Source of the DNA: Prochlorococcus sp. AG-402-G19
GTDB lineage: Bacteria; Cyanobacteriota; Cyanobacteriia; PCC-6307; Cyanobiaceae
NCBI GenBank assembly: GCA_003279455.1
Contig: QCHU01000007.1
Location: 1-45,229 of the forward strand
DNA: 45,229 bases
Reading direction: 5' to 3'
A program made the translations under genes and the position numbers. Every line of letters starts with the position of its first letter. Position 1 is the stretch's first letter. The notes under the pieces are model-generated. The model was not told the origin of the DNA. It did no database searches and worked only from the letters and a program-made list of their open reading frames with translations. This document shows positions 32,637-41,757 of the stretch, piece after piece.

Positions 32637-32795
32637 ATGGATAAGTATCCGATCTTTTCCTTAATTAAAACAGAATGTGGACGAGCAAAATATGAGATGC
32701 TAGTTTCTAAAAAAGGTATATTTAATCGCATAAGACTTTATTGGTTCATCATATTTGCAGCGATTGAAGATTGGAATTTAAAAGCTGATGATTAA
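32637..32795 (+). CDS. Small hypothetical protein, 52 residues
   Basis: From the ATG at 32637 the product is MDKYPIFSLIKTECGRAKYE followed by a basic stretch (LVSKKGIFNRIRLYW), a hydrophobic patch (FIIFAAIEDW) and an acidic end. I know no family. The hydrophobic patch is short for a full membrane helix, so an amphipathic surface helix is possible. It begins 20 bases after ligA and overlaps the stop of the convergent TVP38-family gene by four bases. Reality of the gene is inferred from coding-like composition and tight spacing. Confidence 0.5.
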   Translation: MDKYPIFSLIKTECGRAKYEMLVSKKGIFNRIRLYWFIIFAAIEDWNLKADD

Positions 32796-33416
32796 TCTAG
32801 TTTTTGAGAATCCTGATTAAGTTTTCTTGTTGAACGTAAAACTAAAATAACAACTAAAATAGTCGATAAAATACTAATTAAGCTCCAAATAAATGAACTA
32901 GTATCAGATCTTCCTGAGAGTACTTCACCAAAACTTGAAACTTTGAGTGCTAAAGAACCTAAGCTGCAATATAAAATTGTGCCTGGTAATATACCAATCA
33001 TTCCAAGAGTAAAATCACGAACTTTTACCTCACTCAAGCCATATGTAAAATTAAGCAAGCCAAATGGAAAAAGAGGAGAAAGTCTTGTGAGAAGAATAAC
33101 TTTTAGACCCTCGCGTTTAACAGCTTTCTCCATTATTTGAACTTTTGGAAAATTGGAGACCTTTTTTTGAGCCCATTCTTTTAAAAAAGTTCTCCCTAAA
33201 TAAAAAGTTAGATGAGCTCCAAGAAAAGCACCTACAAACACAACCGAACTTCCAAGCCAGGTGCCATACAGAAAGCCAGACAACATGGAAAGCCATGAGC
33301 CTGGCAACAAACAAGACACCCAAAAAACATACACCAAAGCAAAAAAACAAAATTCCAAAAGGGCTACTTAAAAAAGGAATGAAATTATTAACAAGAGTTT
33401 CTAAGTTGTTAGACAT
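32792..33416 (-). pseudogene. TVP38/TMEM64 family membrane protein, frameshifted at an A7/T7 run
   Basis: TVP38/TMEM64 (DedA superfamily) proteins are multi-pass membrane proteins with a reentrant-loop fold, linked to lipid scrambling or solute handling. The 3' frame (33358-32792) has LLPGSWLSMLSGFLYGTWLG, GAFLGAHLTFYLGR and the TRLSPLFPFGLLNFTYGL block. The true N-terminus lies in another frame from ATG 33414-33416 (MSNNLETLVNNFIPFLSSPF). Deleting one base of the seven-base run at 33341-33347 joins them through GILFFALVYVFWVSCLLPGS, giving 207 residues. As read, translation from the first ATG would leave frame after about 26 residues. It could be sequencing error, a real lesion, or rescued by slippage. 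Confidence 0.8.
33341..33347. other. A7 homopolymer at the TVP38-gene frameshift
   Basis: Seven A on the plus strand (seven T in the gene). Six would restore the frame. This is the site where the two coding frames of the membrane protein meet. Confidence 0.85.
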
Positions 33417-33428
33417 AACTTAAAGAGT

Positions 33429-36230
33429 TCAATCCAATCCCATTAAACGCTCTTTGACAAGGTGAACTTGCGCTTCTGACTCCTTTAAATTTGCTCTGCA
33501 TTCCTCAACGACCTCTTTGGGAGCTTTATCAACAAAATTCTTATTTGCTAGACGTCCAGAAAGACTTTCTATTTCCTTTTGAGCTTTATTTAAATCTTTT
33601 TCAAGCCTTGATCGTAAAGAAGCTATATCTATCAATCCTTCAATAGGAAGAACCACCTCTAGCTCGCCACTTACGCCGGCTACAGCTTTCATAGAAGGTA
33701 ATGATTTTGCTTGCTCTGGAGATAATATTTGAACTTCCTTAGCCTTAGTCAAAGCAGCAATATCATTGATTGATGTTTTTAGGGTGTTTTGCAAGACTTC
33801 CTTGCCAGAGACCAACATAACAGGAGCTTTTTGAGAGGGTTTCAACCCAGCAACTGCTCGTAGATTGCGAATTAATCTGATAGATGCAAATAAATCAGAG
33901 AAAGAACTCTCTAAATCAATATTCAAGTCGTGTTCATTTGATTTTGGCCAAGGCTGCAAAGCTAGAAATTGATCCTCAGCTAAACCTGTTAATCCATGCC
34001 AAAGCTCCTCTGTTAAATGGGGCATTAAAGGATGAAGCATAATCAAAAGATCACTTAAAACTTTGAATAAAATACTTTTCGCTATTTTTTGATCTAATAA
34101 TTCATCAGGAGACAAATTTCTTGAAGTATTCAGTCGACGTTTAATTAATTCTAAATACCAATCACAAAAATCATTCCAAGCAAACTCATATAATCCCTTA
34201 GCCGCCTCTCCTAAAGCATAATTTTCATATCGATTAGCAGTCTCGCGATTGACTCGAGCAAGTCTTGATAAAATCCACTTATCTGATAATTGCAACTGAG
34301 AAGAATCATATTTATCCAAATTTTCAAAATCTTGATCCTCAAGATGGATAAGAGCAAATCTAGTTGCATTCCAAAGCTTGTTAGCAAAATTTCGAGAGGC
34401 CTCAACCGTTACTGAAGTTTGATTTTTGCGATCAAAATCAAGACGTATATCTTGTCCCGCACCTGCAACTTCACGAACAAGAGCAAACCTCAAAGCATCT
34501 GTTCCATATTTTTCTATTAGTAATAAAGGATCAATACCATTTCCTGCGCTTTTACTCATCTTTCGATTCTGCTCATCTCTAACAAGTCCATGAATATAGA
34601 CGTCAGAAAATGGCATCTTCTCCGTAAAGACTCCAGCCATCATTGTCATTCTTGCTACCCAAAAGAAAATAATGTCAAAGCCAGTAACTAGAGTATTTGT
34701 GGGATACCAACGTTGAAAATCAGGATGTGTTTCATCAGGCCAACCTAATGTAGAGAAAGGCCATAAACCACTGGAAAACCATGTATCTAGAACATCTTCA
34801 TCTTGCTCAATTTTGACTGTATCTCCATATTTTTCTCGTGCTAATTGCTTCGCTTCATCTTCTGTACGAGCAACAATGTAAGGTGTTTCATTAACAACTT
34901 TATTATCTGTTTGACTAATTACAAACCAAGCCGGAATGCGATGTCCCCACCACAATTGTCTACTAATACACCAATCTCTTATATCAGTTAACCAATCTCG
35001 ATAAACTTTAGACCATCTATTAGGAATAAATTTAGGTTGCCCTTGATCAAAAAATTCAGAACAACTAGTCGCAAGAGGATCCATTTTGACAAACCACTGA
35101 GTGGAAAGGAGTGGCTCTACTGGTACTTTCCCCCTATCAGAGAAAGGAACACTATGTTTATAAGCGTCAATCTTTGTTAAAAGACCAATTTCCTTTAAAG
35201 AATCAATAACAGCTTCACGAGCCTCAAAACGATCAAGGCCTTCAAATTGACCTGCGTTATGATTCATAGTTCCTTTTTTAGTCATGACTGTTATTTGAGG
35301 TAAGTCATGTCTTTGGCCTATCTCAAAATCATTAGGATCATGAGCTGGAGTAACCTTGACACATCCAGTTCCAAAATCTTTATCTACATGAGGGTCTCCA
35401 ATAACGGGAATAGTTCTACCAACAAGAGGCAAAGTAACTTTCTCCCCTATGAGATCTTTATATCTTTCATCTGATGGGTTAACCGCAACTGCGACATCAC
35501 CAAGCATCGTCTCTGGACGCGTAGTCGCTACTTCTAAATAACTAATTTTTCTTGCACTTGATACAGATGGTGTGACTAACGGATATCGAAAATGCCATAG
35601 ATGTCCATCTACTTCTTTCATTTCAACTTCTAAATCACTCACAGCCGAACCCGAGGCAGGGCACCAATTAACTAAATATTCTCCTCTATATATCAAACCC
35701 TTCTCATGTAAACGAACAAATGCTTCGGAAACAGCTTTACTCAGGCCCTGATCCAATGTAAATCTCTCTCTACTCCAGTCTACGGAATATCCCAAACGCT
35801 TTAATTGATCAACAATTCTTCCACCACTTTTTTCTTTCCACTCCCAAGCTTTTTCCAAAAAGGACGCTCTACCAAGATCACGACGATTTATACCTTTTTC
35901 CTTAAGTTGTCTCTCGAGAATAGTTTGAACTGCAATTGAAGCATGGTCTGTTCCTGGAAGACAAAGCACATTATTTCCTTTTAATCTCTTGTACCTGACA
36001 ACTGTATCGATTAAAGCAGTATTAAATGCATGCCCCATATGCAGACTCCCTGTGACATTTGGAGGAGGGATAACTACGGAGAATGGATCTCCAGAGGCTT
36101 CTGGATCAGCTTTAAAAGCTCCTTTTTCTTCCCAAGCTTTCTGCCAGCGATTTTCAGTGCCAGCTGGATCATATGTTTTAGAAAGCCCTAAGGCTTCCGA
36201 TAATTTAGTCGTTTTTGCCCGCTCGATCAC
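33429..36230 (-). CDS. valS: Valyl-tRNA synthetase
   Basis: ValS charges tRNA-Val and edits mischarged threonine. The 933-residue class I synthetase (GTG start) shows the HIGH motif as HMGH (residues 64-67, in [13 protein letters not shown]), the editing domain segment [49 protein letters not shown], and the KMSKSAGNG loop. An anticodon-binding domain follows, and then the C-terminal coiled coil (about 865-933, Lys/Glu-rich). It starts 12 bases from the frameshifted TVP38 gene. The tRNA-Val gene lies about 1.2 kb beyond its 5' end, which is coincidental as far as I can see. Confidence 0.97.
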
Positions 36231-36303
36231 AGAAAAAAAATGTGTTTAATTTAATTTACTCATTCCCGAGAAAAGTTTTACATCATTCTTGCTTTTCCTA
36301 AAT

Positions 36304-36768
36304 TCAAATGTCATTTTTCACATTCCAAGGAATCGAAACAATTGAATCATGCCTTTCCCATTTAGTAGAAGATAAAGAAACCTTTTCACTTAAACCAATC
36401 GTTTTTAAGGCTTGAACTATATCCATATCATTAATCTCCTTATCTAAAGCTATAGGCATTAGCAAAACTTGTGCTTCTGCAGGATCAGCCATCACATGTA
36501 TTGATAAATCTTCTAAAGCTCGTTCAAAAAATATTTTTCTCATTCGACTTGTTAAAGGAGAACCCATGGCTTTCGCAAATAATTCCAGGCTTTCTTTGTC
36601 TCCAGAAAGCCCACAATTTAAACTTAACCAGATTAAAAATTTAACCCAGCTATCCACGCTCCACAGTGGCTGAAAGCTATCTCGCTTACTATAAATTAAT
36701 TCCATCAATGCGAACTCAAATGCTTTTGCTTGAATAGACGTGCGAGATATTTGTTCCATAGAAGACAT
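36304..36768 (-). CDS. Hypothetical protein, 154 residues
   Basis: I recognise no family. From the ATG at 36768 (MSSMEQISRTS) the product is 154 residues and mostly alpha-helical: MELIYSKRDSFQPLWSVDSW, WVKFLIWLSLNCGL, and RMRKIFFERALEDLSIHVMA. It ends in a short non-helical tail. No membrane segment is long enough to be certain. An in-frame TTG three codons upstream and an ATG three codons downstream are alternatives. It lies upstream of valS on the same strand (about 75 bases) and is divergent from the 82-residue gene. Leu/Ser/Ala-rich helical composition looks coding. Confidence 0.65.
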   Translation of the reverse strand: MSSMEQISRTSIQAKAFEFALMELIYSKRDSFQPLWSVDSWVKFLIWLSLNCGLSGDKESLELFAKAMGSPLTSRMRKIFFERALEDLSIHVMADPAEAQVLLMPIALDKEINDMDIVQALKTIGLSEKVSLSSTKWERHDSIVSIPWNVKNDI

Positions 36769-36822
36769 TTTCTCCAACTACAGCCAAACTAGTGTTTATT
36801 GTTCATTATCTGTTTATTTGTC

Positions 36823-37071
36823 ATGGATCTGAACGACCCTGAACTTGAGTTCTCCGATCTTGTCTACGCATATCAAAGCTGGGTAATTGCAGTAATCAAC
36901 GATGAAAAATTAAATAGTAAGGAGAAGTTACTTACAGAAGAAATATCAGATGATGCTTTAAATGCTATGAGATTCTTACCTGGTGAAGTCACTAGCGCAA
37001 TTGAGACAAGTTTAGCTCGCGTCTATGAAGTTGATTCTGATGAACTTTCTTCGATCTTGTTTCCAGAATAA
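36823..37071 (+). CDS. Hypothetical acidic protein, 82 residues
   Basis: From the ATG at 36823 (MDLNDPELEFSDLVYAYQSW) the product is 82 residues, acidic and helical, with LTEEISDDALNAMRFLPGEV in the middle and SDELSSILFPE at the end. There is no signal or membrane segment, no Cys, and no motif I can name. A longer frame from 36799 adds eight hydrophobic residues (MFIICLFV) that look like leader sequence rather than protein. It is divergent from the 154-residue gene and convergent with the HesB-like gene. Composition and clean start suggest a real lineage-specific gene. Confidence 0.65.
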   Translation: MDLNDPELEFSDLVYAYQSWVIAVINDEKLNSKEKLLTEEISDDALNAMRFLPGEVTSAIETSLARVYEVDSDELSSILFPE

Positions 37072-37101
37072 TAGAGTCAATTCTCTAATTGTTTTAAAAA
37101 A

Positions 37102-37452
37102 TTATTGAGCTTTTGCAAGTTTTCTAAAGCCTGATCCACATGGAGAAGCTTCTGCCCCTTTTGGCGTACTAATCAGAAATCCACCTCCACTTAAATCACC
37201 AAAATAATTCAGCTTTAGACCTTGAAAAAATTGGACTTGATCTTGACGAGCATACAAAGTAATCCCTTCAGCTCTAGCGAGGGGAACACCATCATTTTTC
37301 CCTGGCCTAATTCTTATAAATTTCCATCCTTCTCCACACTTATCATCAAGTAGATCAATATGCATAACTCCTGGTGTTCCAGTAAAAGCAGCTTGCCTAT
37401 TTAACTCTGCTACTGCTGTTGCTGAAATTTTTAATCCAGGACCATTTTGCAT
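37102..37452 (-). CDS. HesB-like (A-type iron-sulfur carrier related) protein
   Basis: A-type carriers (IscA/SufA/HesB) hold an iron-sulfur cluster on three cysteines, one mid-chain and two in a C-terminal CGCG. The 116-residue product has the family outline: LKISATAVAEL start, strand VMHIDLLDDKCGEGW with a Cys at about 39, LKLNYFGDLSGGGFLISTPK, and the C-terminal PCGSGFR. The last motif keeps one Cys instead of two, so cluster binding is doubtful or different. This divergent HesB-like type may serve as an Fe-S scaffold or an unrelated role. It is convergent with the 82-residue gene and 20 bases from tRNA-Val on the same strand. Confidence 0.75.
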   Translation of the reverse strand: MQNGPGLKISATAVAELNRQAAFTGTPGVMHIDLLDDKCGEGWKFIRIRPGKNDGVPLARAEGITLYARQDQVQFFQGLKLNYFGDLSGGGFLISTPKGAEASPCGSGFRKLAKAQ

Positions 37453-37472
37453 AAATTGAAAAATAATCTAGA

Positions 37473-37544
<72 letters not shown>

Positions 37545-37553
37545 ATATATTTT

Positions 37554-37569
37554 TTAGTCCTAGGACTAA
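37554..37569. repeat. 16-base perfect palindrome upstream of tRNA-Val
   Basis: TTAGTCCTAGGACTAA reads the same on both strands. It lies 10 to 25 bases before the tRNA-Val 5' end (tRNA read leftward). It could be an operator, part of the tRNA promoter or leader, or the upstream end of a rightward terminator; its function is unknown. Confidence 0.5.
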
Positions 37570-37626
37570 TTCATTTACTTTATACCTCAAGCTGCTCTGA
37601 TGTTGAGAATTAATCATAATTAGATC

Positions 37627-37669
37627 AACGATTCAAAAAAAATCGTTTTAGGAGCTTCATTACAGCTCT
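37627..37669 (+). promoter_or_regulatory. Two adjacent hairpins in the mazG leader
   Basis: AACGATT (37627-37633) pairs with AATCGTT (37641-37647) around a seven-base A-rich loop and is followed by TTA. GAGCT (52-56 of the 37600 block) pairs with AGCTC (64-68) around a seven-base loop just before the mazG start region. The first hairpin could terminate weakly; the pair could form a small leader structure. By-eye prediction only. Confidence 0.35.
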
Positions 37670-37685
37670 CTCAGGACAACTAAAA

Positions 37686-38499
37686 ATGAAAAACACAAAC
37701 CAATTAAATTTAGACAAAAAAATCAATAAACTCCTTGAAGTGGTTTCAGACCTAAGAGATCCAATCAATGGTTGTCCTTGGGATCTCAAGCAAACTCATC
37801 GTTCGTTGATCCCATATGTTTTAGAGGAAGCCTATGAAGTTGCTCACGCAATACGAGAAGGCAATCCTGACGAATTAAAGGAGGAGCTTGGAGATCTCTT
37901 ATTACAAATAATTTTGCATGCTCAAATAGCAAAAGAAAAAAACTTATTTGATATAGGAGATATCATTGACATAATCACTGAAAAGCTAATTCGCAGGCAT
38001 CCACATGTATTTGAAAAAAAAGCAACAATAAGTATCAAAGAAGTGGAATACTCATGGGAAAAAATCAAGAATAAAGAGAGGCCATCAAATAACTCAAAAA
38101 CTCCAATTAGTGACCGATTAAAATTAAAGATACGACCTCAACCTTCAACAAAAGCAGCACTAATAATCTCTAACAAAGCCTCAAAAAACGGATTCGAATG
38201 GGAAAAAAGTGATCAGATTTGGGATAAATTATATGAAGAATTAGAAGAATTAAAAGATGCATTAAAAAAACGAAAATACTTCCGATGCTGAAACTGAAAT
38301 AGGAGACGTATTATTTACATTGATCAATATTGCAAGATGGCATAAAGTATCTATAGAAGAAGGATTAGCAAAAACTAATAAAAAGTTCCTTGATCGATTA
38401 ACATATATAGAAGAAAATATAGATGGCGCGTTACATTCGCAATCAAAAAAGAAATTAGAAAAATACTGGGAATTAGCGAAGATCAATCTCAAGCATTAA
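37686..38499 (+). pseudogene. mazG: Nucleoside triphosphate pyrophosphohydrolase MazG, frameshifted at an A7 run
   Basis: MazG hydrolyses NTPs to NMPs and PPi and is proposed to clear aberrant nucleotides. The N-terminal domain is clear: GCPWDLKQTHRSLIPYVLEE and EELGDLLLQIILHAQIA with the EExxE...ExxD metal-binding set. As read, the frame stops at 38291 after EELEELKDALKK. Removing one A from the A7 run at 38264-38270 continues as LKNENTSDAETEIGDVLFTL and on to a stop at 38497-38499, giving about 270 residues, the normal two-domain length. The second EIGD metal motif lies beyond the shift, so the read form would lack half of the C-terminal domain. It starts the mazG-speE-speB cluster. Confidence 0.85.
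38264..38270. other. A7 homopolymer at the mazG frameshift
   Basis: Seven A in the codon context tta aaa aaa cga; with six the frame continues into the second MazG domain. This is the exact point where the two reading frames join. Confidence 0.85.
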
Positions 38500-38509
38500 T
38501 ATAGTAATT

Positions 38510-39376
38510 ATGAACGACAAACTAAAAACAAGTTCAGAGTGGCTTGACGAATATCATCAAGGCGTTAGATATGGGCTACAGGGAAAAGTAATACTAGAAG
38601 AGTCAAGTCCTTTTCAAAAGATTACCATATATGAAAGCAACAGATATGGGACAGCATTATTACTTGATGATTGTTGGATGACCGCAGAAAAGTCTGAAAA
38701 GTATTATCACGAATGTCTTATTCATCCTGCCTTGTGTTGTTCTAAACAAATAGAGAATATTTTAATTATCGGAGGAGGTGATGGGGGTAGTGCAAGAGAA
38801 TGTTTAAAATATAAAGATGTTAAATCTATCGATTTAGTTGAAATCGATATAAGAGTTATTGAATTAAGTCAAAAGTATTTGCCAACTATTGGAAGCAATG
38901 CATGGTCTGATTCAAGATTGAATTTACAAATCAAGAATGGTATTGATTGGGTAAAACATACAAAAGAGAATTCATATGATGTGATTGTTATTGATGGAGC
39001 AGATCCTATTGGACCATCTAAAGAATTATTCAGCAATTCTTTTCTAAAAGATTGCAAACGAATACTTAAACCAGGAGGGGTTTTGGCAACACAAAGCGAA
39101 TCCCCAGAATCTTTTCAGCAAGTTCATATGAATATTGTCAAAGTTCTTCGTGAAATTTTTGACTACGCAGATCCAATGTATGGATCTGTATCTATATACC
39201 CAAGCGGTTTATGGAGCTGGACATTTGCATCTATGGAGCAGCCAAAATATATGCATCCAAGAAAAAGTCGCGTAGAAGAGATCTCCGAAAATTGTCAGAT
39301 TTGGAGTGAGCGATTGCAAAAAGGAGCATTTAACACTATCCCTGCATTCATAGAAAGAGAGCTAGCAAAAATATGA
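38510..39376 (+). CDS. speE: Spermidine synthase
   Basis: SpeE transfers an aminopropyl group from decarboxylated S-adenosylmethionine to putrescine. The 288-residue protein has the N-terminal strand domain (YGTALLLDDCWMTAEKSEKY), the Rossmann-like IIGGGDGGSARECLKY nucleotide-binding block (about 82-98), the acidic DLVEIDIRVI, and the catalytic-site IDGADPIGPSKELF. It overlaps speB by four bases (ATGA), coupling it to the enzyme that makes its substrate putrescine, and starts 10 bases after the restored mazG stop. Confidence 0.95.
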   Translation: MNDKLKTSSEWLDEYHQGVRYGLQGKVILEESSPFQKITIYESNRYGTALLLDDCWMTAEKSEKYYHECLIHPALCCSKQIENILIIGGGDGGSARECLKYKDVKSIDLVEIDIRVIELSQKYLPTIGSNAWSDSRLNLQIKNGIDWVKHTKENSYDVIVIDGADPIGPSKELFSNSFLKDCKRILKPGGVLATQSESPESFQQVHMNIVKVLREIFDYADPMYGSVSIYPSGLWSWTFASMEQPKYMHPRKSRVEEISENCQIWSERLQKGAFNTIPAFIERELAKI

Positions 39377-40281
39377 CCAAATCCAACCTCAAAGATCTAT
39401 CACTATTTAATAATGATGGTGCAATATTTATGGGTGCACAAAGAGGGATCGATAAATGCAGAGTATCGCTTTTAGGAGTTCCATATGATGGGACTTGTTG
39501 CTTTAGGCCTGGTGCAAGATTTGGTCCTTCTGCTGTCAGGGAAGATAGTTATGGAATTGAAACATATTGTCCGCAATTAAATTTAGACTTAGAGGATATA
39601 AACTTTGCTGACGTAGGTTCATTAGATGTTCCCATTGGAGATGCAAGGTTAACACTGAATTATATAAGAGATGCTACAGATATATTACTTAAAAATAATT
39701 TAAAGCCGCTTATTATTGGTGGAGAACATTCAATAACAAGTGGGGTTATTAAATCAATAATTACTAATTATCCTGAATTGATTATTATTCAATTAGATGC
39801 TCATGCAGACCTTAGAGATGAATGGTTAGGTAGTAAATTTAGTCATGCATGTACTATGAAAAGATGTTTAGAAATACTACCTAGCAAAAAGATTTTTCAA
39901 ATAGGAATAAGAAGTGGAACAAAATCAGAATTTCTTGAAATGAATAATACTAAAAGATTAATTCATCATACTTTAGGAGGGAATGGAAAATCTTTAGAAG
40001 AGGCTCTAAAAAGTTTTAAAGGGACCCCAATCTATTTAACTTTTGATTTAGATTGGTTTGATCCATCTATAATGCCAGGAACAGGAACTCCTGAGCCGGG
40101 AGGCTATTTCTGGGGAGATTTTGCAGCAATAATAGATGTGATTAAGTCTCATAACTTAATTGGTGCTGATGTAGTCGAATTATCTCCCAAATTAGATAAC
40201 ACTGGTATTAGTAGTATCCTTGCTGCAAAAGTTATACGTTCATTAATTATGTTATTGGACAAATCATCCTCAAAAATTTAA
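39373..40281 (+). CDS. speB: Agmatinase
   Basis: SpeB hydrolyses agmatine to putrescine and urea. The 302-residue ureohydrolase has the three metal-binding blocks of the arginase fold: GGEHSITSG (about 116-124), DAHADLRDEW (about 140-149), and FDLDWFDPSIMPGTGTPEPG (about 225-244). The PEPGG end of the last block favours agmatinase over arginase. The ATG overlaps the speE stop by four bases. Together with an unseen arginine decarboxylase this completes arginine to spermidine. Confidence 0.93.
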   Translation: MTKSNLKDLSLFNNDGAIFMGAQRGIDKCRVSLLGVPYDGTCCFRPGARFGPSAVREDSYGIETYCPQLNLDLEDINFADVGSLDVPIGDARLTLNYIRDATDILLKNNLKPLIIGGEHSITSGVIKSIITNYPELIIIQLDAHADLRDEWLGSKFSHACTMKRCLEILPSKKIFQIGIRSGTKSEFLEMNNTKRLIHHTLGGNGKSLEEALKSFKGTPIYLTFDLDWFDPSIMPGTGTPEPGGYFWGDFAAIIDVIKSHNLIGADVVELSPKLDNTGISSILAAKVIRSLIMLLDKSSSKI

Positions 40282-40291
40282 ATTTAAATTC

Positions 40292-40507
40292 TCATTGAAC
40301 TAATACCTTTTCAAAATCGAGTTGTTGATCAACAGACCTTTCAGAAATCTTTGGGAAATAAGGTTCTTTTTTTATCCAATGACCACAAGAAACAAATGAA
40401 GATATCTCAGAATGTATTTTTATCTTTCTAAGTTTGCACCATGAGAATGAATCAAAATGACTTGAAACACACTGATTGCAGCTCATACAAGATCTTTTAA
40501 GAGTCAT
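40292..40507 (-). CDS. Small Cys-rich hypothetical protein, 71 residues
   Basis: I recognise no family. From the ATG at 40507 (MTLKRSCMSCNQCVSSHFDS) the 71-residue product has a CxxCxxC cluster at residues 7-13, and single Cys at about 24 and 42, the latter in SFVSCGHWIKKEP. Five Cys with nearby His suggest metal binding, possibly zinc or iron-sulfur, as inference only. An in-frame TTG just upstream is the other possible start. It is convergent with speB (10-base gap) and divergent from gcvT (130 bases). The Cys cluster makes a chance frame unlikely. Confidence 0.6.
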   Translation of the reverse strand: MTLKRSCMSCNQCVSSHFDSFSWCKLRKIKIHSEISSFVSCGHWIKKEPYFPKISERSVDQQLDFEKVLVQ

Positions 40508-40637
40508 CAAGTCTTAACCCAAGACTCATAGAGTAGTAAAACTTTCCGGATCGAGCCACAAAGCATTAAATTTAGTTCTAGAAATTCTTATGGGTTCACG
40601 TTTTTACTAGTGAATTTCTTTAAACGTTCAGGAAAAA

Positions 40638-41757
40638 ATGAAATTACTTAAAACTCCTCTTTACGAAGAATGCCAAAAATTAGGGGCTAAAATGGTTCCT
40701 TTTGCAAATTGGGAAATGCCTGTTAGTTTTTCTGGGTTAATAGAAGAACACAATGCAGTAAGAAAAAAATGTTGGAATGTTCGACATATCTCATATGGGT
40801 GTTGTGCAAGTAAAAGGTAAAAATATCAAGAGCTCATTACAAAATTTAGTTCCTTCAGACGTCTTTCGAATAGGACCTGGGGAAGCGTGTTATACAGTTT
40901 TTTTAAAAGAAAATGGAGGAATTCAAGACGATCTAATCATTTATGATCAAGGAATTTTAGACACAAATGAAGAAAGCATACTTTTAGTTATTAATGCCGC
41001 AAGAAAAGAATCAGACATTGAATGGTTAAATTCAAATGTTTCAACAAAAGAAATCACAATATCCGAATTCATGCCTCACGGTGCATTAATTGCCATCCAA
41101 GGTCCACAATCAATCCGTGCATTTGAGGAAATTCTTCAAGAGTCTTTATCAGATTTACCACGCTTTGGGCACAAAACTATTATTTCTAATCCCAATTTAA
41201 TTAACGGAAAAGACTCAATTTTTATTGCACGAACTGGGTATACAGGAGAGGAAGGTTTCGAATTTTTGTCATCGCCAGAAACAGCACAGTCCATCTGGAA
41301 GAATCTCATCGCATCGGGGGTTACTCCATGCGGGCTTGGAGCAAGAGATACACTTCGATTAGAAGCTTCTATGCATCTATATGGCAACGATATCGACCTA
41401 GATACCACTCCCTTTGAAGCTGGCTTGGGTTGGTTAGTTCATTTAGAAATGCCTCATGATTTTATAGGCAGAAAAGCTCTAGAAAAACAAGCCGAAAATG
41501 GAACAGGGAAAAAACTTGTTGGTATTAAGGTGCAGGGTAAAGGAATCGCAAGAAAAGGATATCCAGTTTTATACAACAACGAAACCGTTGGGCAAGTTAC
41601 TAGCGGAACTTGGTCTCCAACACTGAAAGAACCTATAGCTCTTGCGTATGTGCCTAGCAAAATTGCAAAAACAAATACTAAATTAGAAGTAGAAATCAGA
41701 GGGAAGAAACATCCTGCAATAATCGTAAAAAGACCTTTCTATAGAAAAGGTTTTTGA
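40638..41757 (+). pseudogene. gcvT: Glycine cleavage T protein (aminomethyltransferase), frameshifted at an A7 run
   Basis: GcvT transfers the methylene group to tetrahydrofolate in the glycine cleavage system. Frame one from ATG 40638 reads [20 protein letters not shown]...EEHNAVRKK and stops at 40820. Frame two holds [14 protein letters not shown] onward, with YTGEEGFE, GLGARDTLRLEASMHLYG, GLGWLVH and the C-terminal barrel domain. Removing one A from the A7 run at 40763-40769 gives [15 protein letters not shown], the typical sequence, and a 372-residue protein. As read, no full-length T protein could be made without slippage, although gcvP and gcvH here are intact. Sequencing error, a true mutation or slippage rescue remain open. 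Confidence 0.88.
40763..40769. other. A7 homopolymer at the gcvT frameshift
   Basis: Seven A between the Arg codon and the Val-Gly-Met-Phe-Asp segment; six restore the family-typical reading. This is the third such run in the segment. Confidence 0.85.

What the first reader, a model, noticed from the sequence alone, without database searches (positions are those of the whole stretch)
33341..40769. Three same-direction +1 shifts at A7 runs in one 7.5-kb stretch
Seen: all three broken genes need exactly one A/T removed from a seven-base run. LigA next door has five A7/A8 runs in frame, and tig has three, so long runs are not all affected. Known: polymerase slippage at poly(A) tracts rescues frameshifted genes in AT-rich endosymbionts such as Buchnera. 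Inferred choices: homopolymer over-calling in a low-quality segment; relaxed selection on non-essential genes (none of the three is a replication or translation gene); or slippage-tolerant or slippage-regulated genes.
Basis: partly seen in the sequence, partly recalled or inferred. Interest (0 to 1): 0.75.

Follow-up and report, generated by a model that had tools for sequence, protein, structure and literature searches.

The report
Likely sequencing errors in single-cell genome
Three broken genes close together in a marine cyanobacterium's draft genome are most likely amplification, sequencing or assembly errors at short single-letter runs, because the relatives compared lack these breaks and the same draft has similar ones in a gene the cell should need.

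Summary
The three +1 frame breaks are in the sequence: a VTT-domain membrane protein (A7 at 33341), mazG (38264) and gcvT (40763). They are private to this genome among the relatives that could be compared. At mazG, 7 of 22 relatives carry the same A7 in frame; the extra letter is a C beside it. The window is contig 7 of a 1.28-Mb, 67%-complete, 45-contig Prochlorococcus-like draft whose last contigs are just over 2,000 bases, which looks like a single-cell amplified genome (inferred). Against a closed relative, 522 aligned genes (478 kb) gave five private interior frame breaks that I kept, all +1 at homopolymers: these three, and two 10 kb apart on contig 8, in G runs of argB (no other copy over the cut-off) and a signal-peptidase-like gene. 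None of the kept breaks is in an A/T run of 8 or more (150 such coding runs), mutS is intact, and private substitutions are not raised in the stretch. Best reading: local indel errors; the workflow used for neighbouring genomes reports on average 3 indels per 100 kb. The density here is higher, so local clustering of errors must be assumed. Slippage rescue and phase variation fit poorly. Real mutations in one cell cannot be excluded without reads.

The parts
32792..33416 (-). VTT-domain (TVP38/DedA-like) membrane protein gene, frame broken near its N-terminus
   Evidence: Pfam PF09335 in the downstream frame, 93.5 bits; relative's 204-aa protein matches in frames -3 (1-36) and -1 (25-204)
33341..33347 (+). 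A7 run (T7 in the gene) where the VTT gene changes frame
   Evidence: of 19 other genus genomes matched by the pattern, 18 are one letter shorter and one (G014) lies about 1 kb from the homologous place and was dropped
37652..38499 (+). mazG (nucleoside triphosphate pyrophosphohydrolase) gene, frame broken at about 72% of its length
   Evidence: PRK09562 and TIGR00444 in the first frame; split match 2-206 and 206-282
38264..38271 (+). A7 run followed by a private C at the mazG frame break
   Evidence: 7 of 22 relatives have the same A7 directly followed by G; of 35 other genomes with a match, 34 (alignments of 290 bases or more) are one base shorter over the aligned stretch and one (G013) matches over 29 bases only
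40638..41757 (+). gcvT (glycine cleavage T protein) gene, frame broken at about 12% of its length
   Evidence: TIGR00528, 349 bits, in the downstream frame; the only place found in the assembly, as two pieces
40763..40769 (+). A7 run at the gcvT frame break; most relatives have A6, others forms of the same total length
   Evidence: 24 of 24 other genus genomes matched by the pattern are one letter shorter
33429..36230 (-). valS, intact, between the first two breaks
   Evidence: PRK05729, 1204 bits over 18-928 of 933 aa
38510..39376 (+). speE (polyamine aminopropyltransferase), intact, between the last two breaks
   Evidence: PRK00811, 324 bits
39373..40281 (+). agmatinase-family gene, intact, between the last two breaks
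   Evidence: TIGR01230, 253 bits

Best explanation
The three frame breaks are most likely not in the cell's genome. They are single-base insertion errors at or beside short homopolymers, introduced when one cell's DNA was amplified, sequenced and assembled, and they survived where few independent molecules or reads covered the locus. Shown: privacy among the genomes compared, +1 direction, homopolymer sites, local clustering, and a second similar pair on contig 8 that includes argB. Inferred: that the genome is a single-cell amplified genome, that coverage was locally thin, and which step (polymerase, read or assembler) made the errors.
For: No compared genome shares any of the three states: mazG 34 of 34, gcvT 24 of 24, VTT 18 of 18 after the dropped matches named under parts. 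Over 522 genes and 478 kb of the assembly aligned to a closed relative, five private interior frame breaks were kept out of 13 interior events, all +1 at homopolymers: three in 7.4 kb of contig 7 and two in 10 kb of contig 8. A 3+2 grouping this tight of five random events arises in 0.0003 of simulations. One contig-8 break is in argB, for which no other match over the family's cut-off was found; 14 of 14 other matched genomes are one letter shorter there. At argB and VTT the +1 goes with a base change into the run, and at mazG the extra letter is not the run's. mutS is intact and none of the kept breaks is in an A/T run of 8 or more (150 coding runs), which argues against a slippage mutator. 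The assembly (45 contigs, 66.7% complete; last three contigs 2,011, 2,241 and 2,317 bases) fits the 2,000-base cut-off of the single-cell workflow used for neighbouring genomes, which reports on average 3.0 indels per 100 kb over three benchmark cultures (PMC6122165, passages).
Against: No reads or coverage were seen. Private substitutions are not raised in the stretch: 94 in 33,501-40,500 (about 13 per kb) against 156 in the rest of 28.5-45.2 kb (about 16 per kb), and the replacing share (0.51) lies within the range of the 22 other genomes tabulated (0.33-0.59). The same region in 26 distinct other loci, 23 of them with single-cell-style names, held one interior frame-changing gap (a 4-base one) in 382 gene copies and 381 kb, so such errors are rare in this kind of data. 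The benchmark authors say P. marinus drafts tended to have the fewest indels (PMC5519541, passages). At 3 per 100 kb, three or more in a given 7.4 kb has probability 0.0016, so local clustering must be assumed. A further event beside an A9 run (L073:8443) was set aside as probably upstream of a gene start; its privacy was not tested.
Confidence: 0.77

Rival explanations
1. Real, recent mutations in this one cell: an error-prone synthesis tract or a damaged cell gave clustered +1 insertions, and the cell was a dead end.
For: Local clusters on two contigs would also fit short tracts of error-prone copying. Substitution levels look normal, as for otherwise well-read DNA.
Against: The argB break should be lethal or nearly so for a free-living photosynthetic cell (established biology, not tested). 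mutS is intact (mutL not tested). The contig-7 stretch has no excess of private substitutions, which error-prone copying would usually leave; contig 8 was not tested for this.
Confidence: 0.12
2. Ongoing gene loss: the lineage no longer needs the VTT protein, mazG and gcvT, and the breaks are young pseudogenes.
For: gcvT has more replacing than silent private changes (16 to 8).
Against: No copy of these genes in the 26 control loci has an interior frame break (copies cut by contig ends are partial). The VTT gene (3 silent, 0 replacing) and mazG (3, 5) show little sign of relaxation, and unbroken speE has 2 silent and 7 replacing. argB and a signal-peptidase-like gene are hit too. Loss of three neighbouring, apparently unrelated genes by the same kind of event would be a coincidence.
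Confidence: 0.08
3. Slippage-tolerant or slippage-regulated genes: RNA polymerase slips on the A7 run and part of the transcripts are back in frame, as argued for Buchnera and Blochmannia.
For: The sites are poly(A) runs and the rest of each frame is conserved.
Against: No compared genome shares the state. Runs are 7 long, while the Blochmannia paper counts tracts of 9 or more as its long tracts (PMC3017870, passages). At mazG the extra letter is a C beside the run. A transcript-error survey detected no case of a transcription error restoring a frame in Buchnera (PMC5574713, passages).
Confidence: 0.03

Closest known systems
Residual indel errors in single-cell amplified genome drafts (Bigelow SCGC workflow; PMC5519541, PMC6122165)
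   Same: Private single-base indels; the 2,000-base contig cut-off and partial completeness match
   Different: The clustering is stronger than an even rate would give; reads not seen
Poly(A) frameshifts rescued by transcriptional slippage in Buchnera and Blochmannia
   Same: Single-base shift in or beside an A run in an otherwise conserved gene
   Different: Runs of 7, not shared with any compared relative, one site not in the run itself, about 36% G+C and nearest to Prochlorococcus, which is free-living
Phase-variable homopolymer (contingency) loci
   Same: A run-length change switches a reading frame
   Different: No out-of-frame length variant in the compared relatives; none of the three is a surface gene of the usual kind (recalled)

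Membership tests
Single-cell draft assembly error | State private to one assembly | tested here: met
   34 of 34, 24 of 24 and 18 of 18 other genomes differ, after dropping G013 and G014; genomes without a match are not counted
Single-cell draft assembly error | Similar breaks elsewhere in the assembly, also in genes the cell needs | tested here: met
   argB and a signal-peptidase-like gene on contig 8; need for argB is established biology, not tested
Single-cell draft assembly error | Raised private substitutions in the same stretch | tested here: not met
   No rise in 33.5-40.5 kb; not required if errors are confined to homopolymers
Single-cell draft assembly error | Thin or mixed read support at the sites | not testable with these tools
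   Reads not available here
Slippage-rescued poly(A) frameshift | Long tract (the paper read counts 9 or more as long) | tested here: not met
   All three are A7
Slippage-rescued poly(A) frameshift | Frameshift kept across related strains | tested here: not met
   Private in the comparisons made; no other genome of the same species was seen in them (closest about 93-94% identical)
Slippage-rescued poly(A) frameshift | Mixed-length transcripts | not testable with these tools
   No RNA data
Homopolymer phase variation | Out-of-frame length variants among relatives | tested here: not met
Mismatch-repair mutator | Lost or broken mutS | tested here: not met
   One mutS1 match, 821 bits, open frame of 927 aa; mutL not tested

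The most novel reading that the evidence does not exclude
The clusters are real: short tracts of one cell's chromosome were copied by an error-prone process that adds single bases at homopolymers, leaving blocks of +1 breaks in about 10-kb patches.
Probability: 0.06. Interest if true: 0.55.

Novelty: not a real feature. Interest (0 to 1): 0.13.

Why it matters
It warns against reading pseudogenes or slippage rescue from single-cell drafts: a handful of +1 breaks can cluster in adjoining genes and look like biology. The simple checks used here (privacy among relatives, a count over the rest of the assembly, whether needed genes are hit) help to sort such cases out.

Tried and rejected
Slippage mutator: rejected because none of the kept private breaks is in a coding A/T run of 8 or more (150 runs) and mutS is intact. 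Generally poor segment with many wrong bases: rejected by flat private substitution counts. The automatic list of private insertions came out empty because gap placement varied among pairwise alignments; it is not evidence of absence and was not used.

One search found 40 net frame-changing gap groups; 27 lie in the first 6% or last 8% of their ORF and were not examined further, so breaks close to gene ends are not counted. Of the 13 interior ones, eight were not counted as private breaks: L061, L083 and L091 (ORFs of 309-369 bases with complex or repeated gaps), L072 and L076:4716 (at 89% and 91% of the gene, one frame over nearly all of the protein; the signal-peptidase-like break at 88% was kept because its second frame matches the tail), L073:4934 and L073:8443 (at 6-7% of the ORF, probably upstream of the true starts; the first is ambiguous, the second is beside an A9 run), and L092 (run length shared by two other genomes). 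The privacy of the set-aside events other than L092 was not tested. A first pass on part of the reference (360 genes, 332 kb) is superseded. In one search some control loci were the same contigs under two names; one search counts 26 distinct ones, typed in from the table. In one search the match of G014 (23 letters) was dropped because it lies about 1 kb from the homologous place implied; the other 18 agree in place or 24 except G054, which could not be checked. In one search the 29-base match of G013 was dropped. An earlier count said that gcvT is A6 in all relatives; that is too broad, as searches show.

Paper searches (0 papers; 1 paper, unrelated by title) found no report on this exact issue; of the papers listed only passages of PMC6122165, PMC5519541, PMC5574713 and PMC3017870 were read.
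Full report
What the window is. The window is the whole of contig 7 (45,229 bases) of a 1,282,444-base assembly in 45 contigs, 66.7% complete. Its speE gene finds 27 loci, 26 of them titled Prochlorococcus and one Synechococcaceae, most with single-cell-style names such as AG-402 and AG-409; the closest is about 92-93% identical over the region. G+C is 32-39% in 2-kb steps. The last three contigs are 2,011, 2,241 and 2,317 bases long, which fits the 2,000-base cut-off of the Bigelow single-cell workflow (PMC6122165 and PMC5519541, passages).

The observation. Three genes change frame at A7 runs: a VTT-domain membrane protein (A7 33341-33347), mazG (38264-38270) and gcvT (40763-40769). A closed relative's proteins match each gene in two frames meeting at the run. 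The shift is +1 in all three. Between them valS, speE and an agmatinase-family gene are intact. At mazG, 7 of 22 relatives carry the same A7 in frame with a G after it, and the window has an extra C there. At the VTT gene most relatives have A5CC and one has A6C, so a substitution goes with the +1. gcvT is a plain A6 to A7 against most relatives, though L006 has an in-frame A7 by substitution.

Privacy. Across the genus set (41 genomes, own included): mazG had 35 other matches, of which 34 with alignments of 290 bases or more are one base shorter and one is a 29-base match. 24 of 24 others matched by a gcvT pattern are one letter shorter. Of 19 others matched by a VTT pattern, 18 are one letter shorter and one was dropped as not homologous in place. 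Genomes that did not match the exact flanks are not counted, and the closest genome seen is about 93-94% identical, so no sister of the same population was compared. In 26 distinct control loci covering the same region (382 gene copies, 381 kb; interior taken as 5-93% of the gene), one frame-changing gap was seen, a 4-base one in L042.

The rest of the assembly. I aligned 1,584 ORFs of the closed relative to 771 kb of the assembly (60% of it, the window included); 522 genes and 478 kb aligned. Of 40 net frame-changing gap groups, 27 lie near ORF ends and were left; of 13 interior ones, eight were set aside for the reasons given under tried and rejected. The other five are the three in the window and two on contig 8, 10 kb apart, both +1 in G runs. 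One is in argB (TIGR00761; two pieces within C8:19156-19861, the only other match under the cut-off), where 14 of 14 other matched genomes are one letter shorter. The other is in a gene that looks like signal peptidase I (label recalled from its motif), where 7 of 7 others are one letter shorter. An A8/A7 difference on contig 22 is shared by two other genomes and is not private.

Statistics. 3 of 41 coding A/T runs of 7 or more in the window are privately broken (mazG beside its run) against 0 of 426 elsewhere (Fisher p = 0.0006). None of the kept breaks is in an A/T run of 8 or more (150 runs); one set-aside event near a gene start lies beside an A9 run. A 3+2 grouping this tight for five random events occurs in 0.0003 of simulations. 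These tests were chosen after seeing the data. The sign (five of five +1) alone is not significant (two-sided 0.06). At the published average of 3.0 indels per 100 kb, 14 would be expected in 478 kb, 1.4 in the window and 0.22 in 7.4 kb. The total is therefore unremarkable and only the local density stands out (0.0016 for three or more in a given 7.4 kb). The benchmark's P. marinus drafts tended to have the fewest indels, so the average may overstate the expectation.

Substitutions and selection. Positions where no relative shares the window's base number 94 in 33,501-40,500 (about 13 per kb) and 156 in the rest of 28.5-45.2 kb (about 16 per kb). The share of replacing changes among private ones is 0.51, within the 0.33-0.59 of the 22 other genomes tabulated. 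gcvT shows 8 silent and 16 replacing private changes, a mild hint of relaxed constraint, but unbroken speE shows 2 and 7, and the other two broken genes show 3 and 0 (VTT) and 3 and 5 (mazG).

Reading. The simplest account is indel error at homopolymers in two poorly supported patches of a single-cell draft. The argB break is the strongest point: a free-living photosynthetic cell without argB should not be able to make arginine (established biochemistry, not tested), yet the break has the same form. mutS is intact, so a mutator is unlikely. Slippage rescue, as argued for Blochmannia (PMC3017870, passages), is not needed and not supported; a survey of transcript errors detected no restored frames in Buchnera (PMC5574713, passages). 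Real mutations in a doomed cell remain possible, and only the reads can settle it.

Noticed in passing
L076:19072-19987 (contig 8 of the same genome): argB carries a private +1 at a G run in a glycine-rich stretch (active-site role recalled); no other match over the family's cut-off in the incomplete assembly.
   Followed up: yes
L077:9135-9828 (contig 8 of the same genome): A gene that looks like signal peptidase I (label recalled) has a private +1 at a G run about 88% along it.
   Followed up: yes
L092:1447-2873 (contig 22 of the same genome): A 475-aa gene of the closed relative is split at an A run that is A8 in two matched genomes and A7 in three, own included; possibly a real frame polymorphism in the genus.
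   Followed up: partly
L073:3369-5056 and L073:8411-8931 (contig 5 of the same genome): One-base differences near the starts of two conserved genes, 3.5 kb apart, one beside an A9 run; unclear for the first whether it lies before the true start.
   Followed up: partly
L042 (G014:C8), ligA: A net 4-base frame-changing gap at about 41% of ligA in this more distant relative.
   Followed up: no
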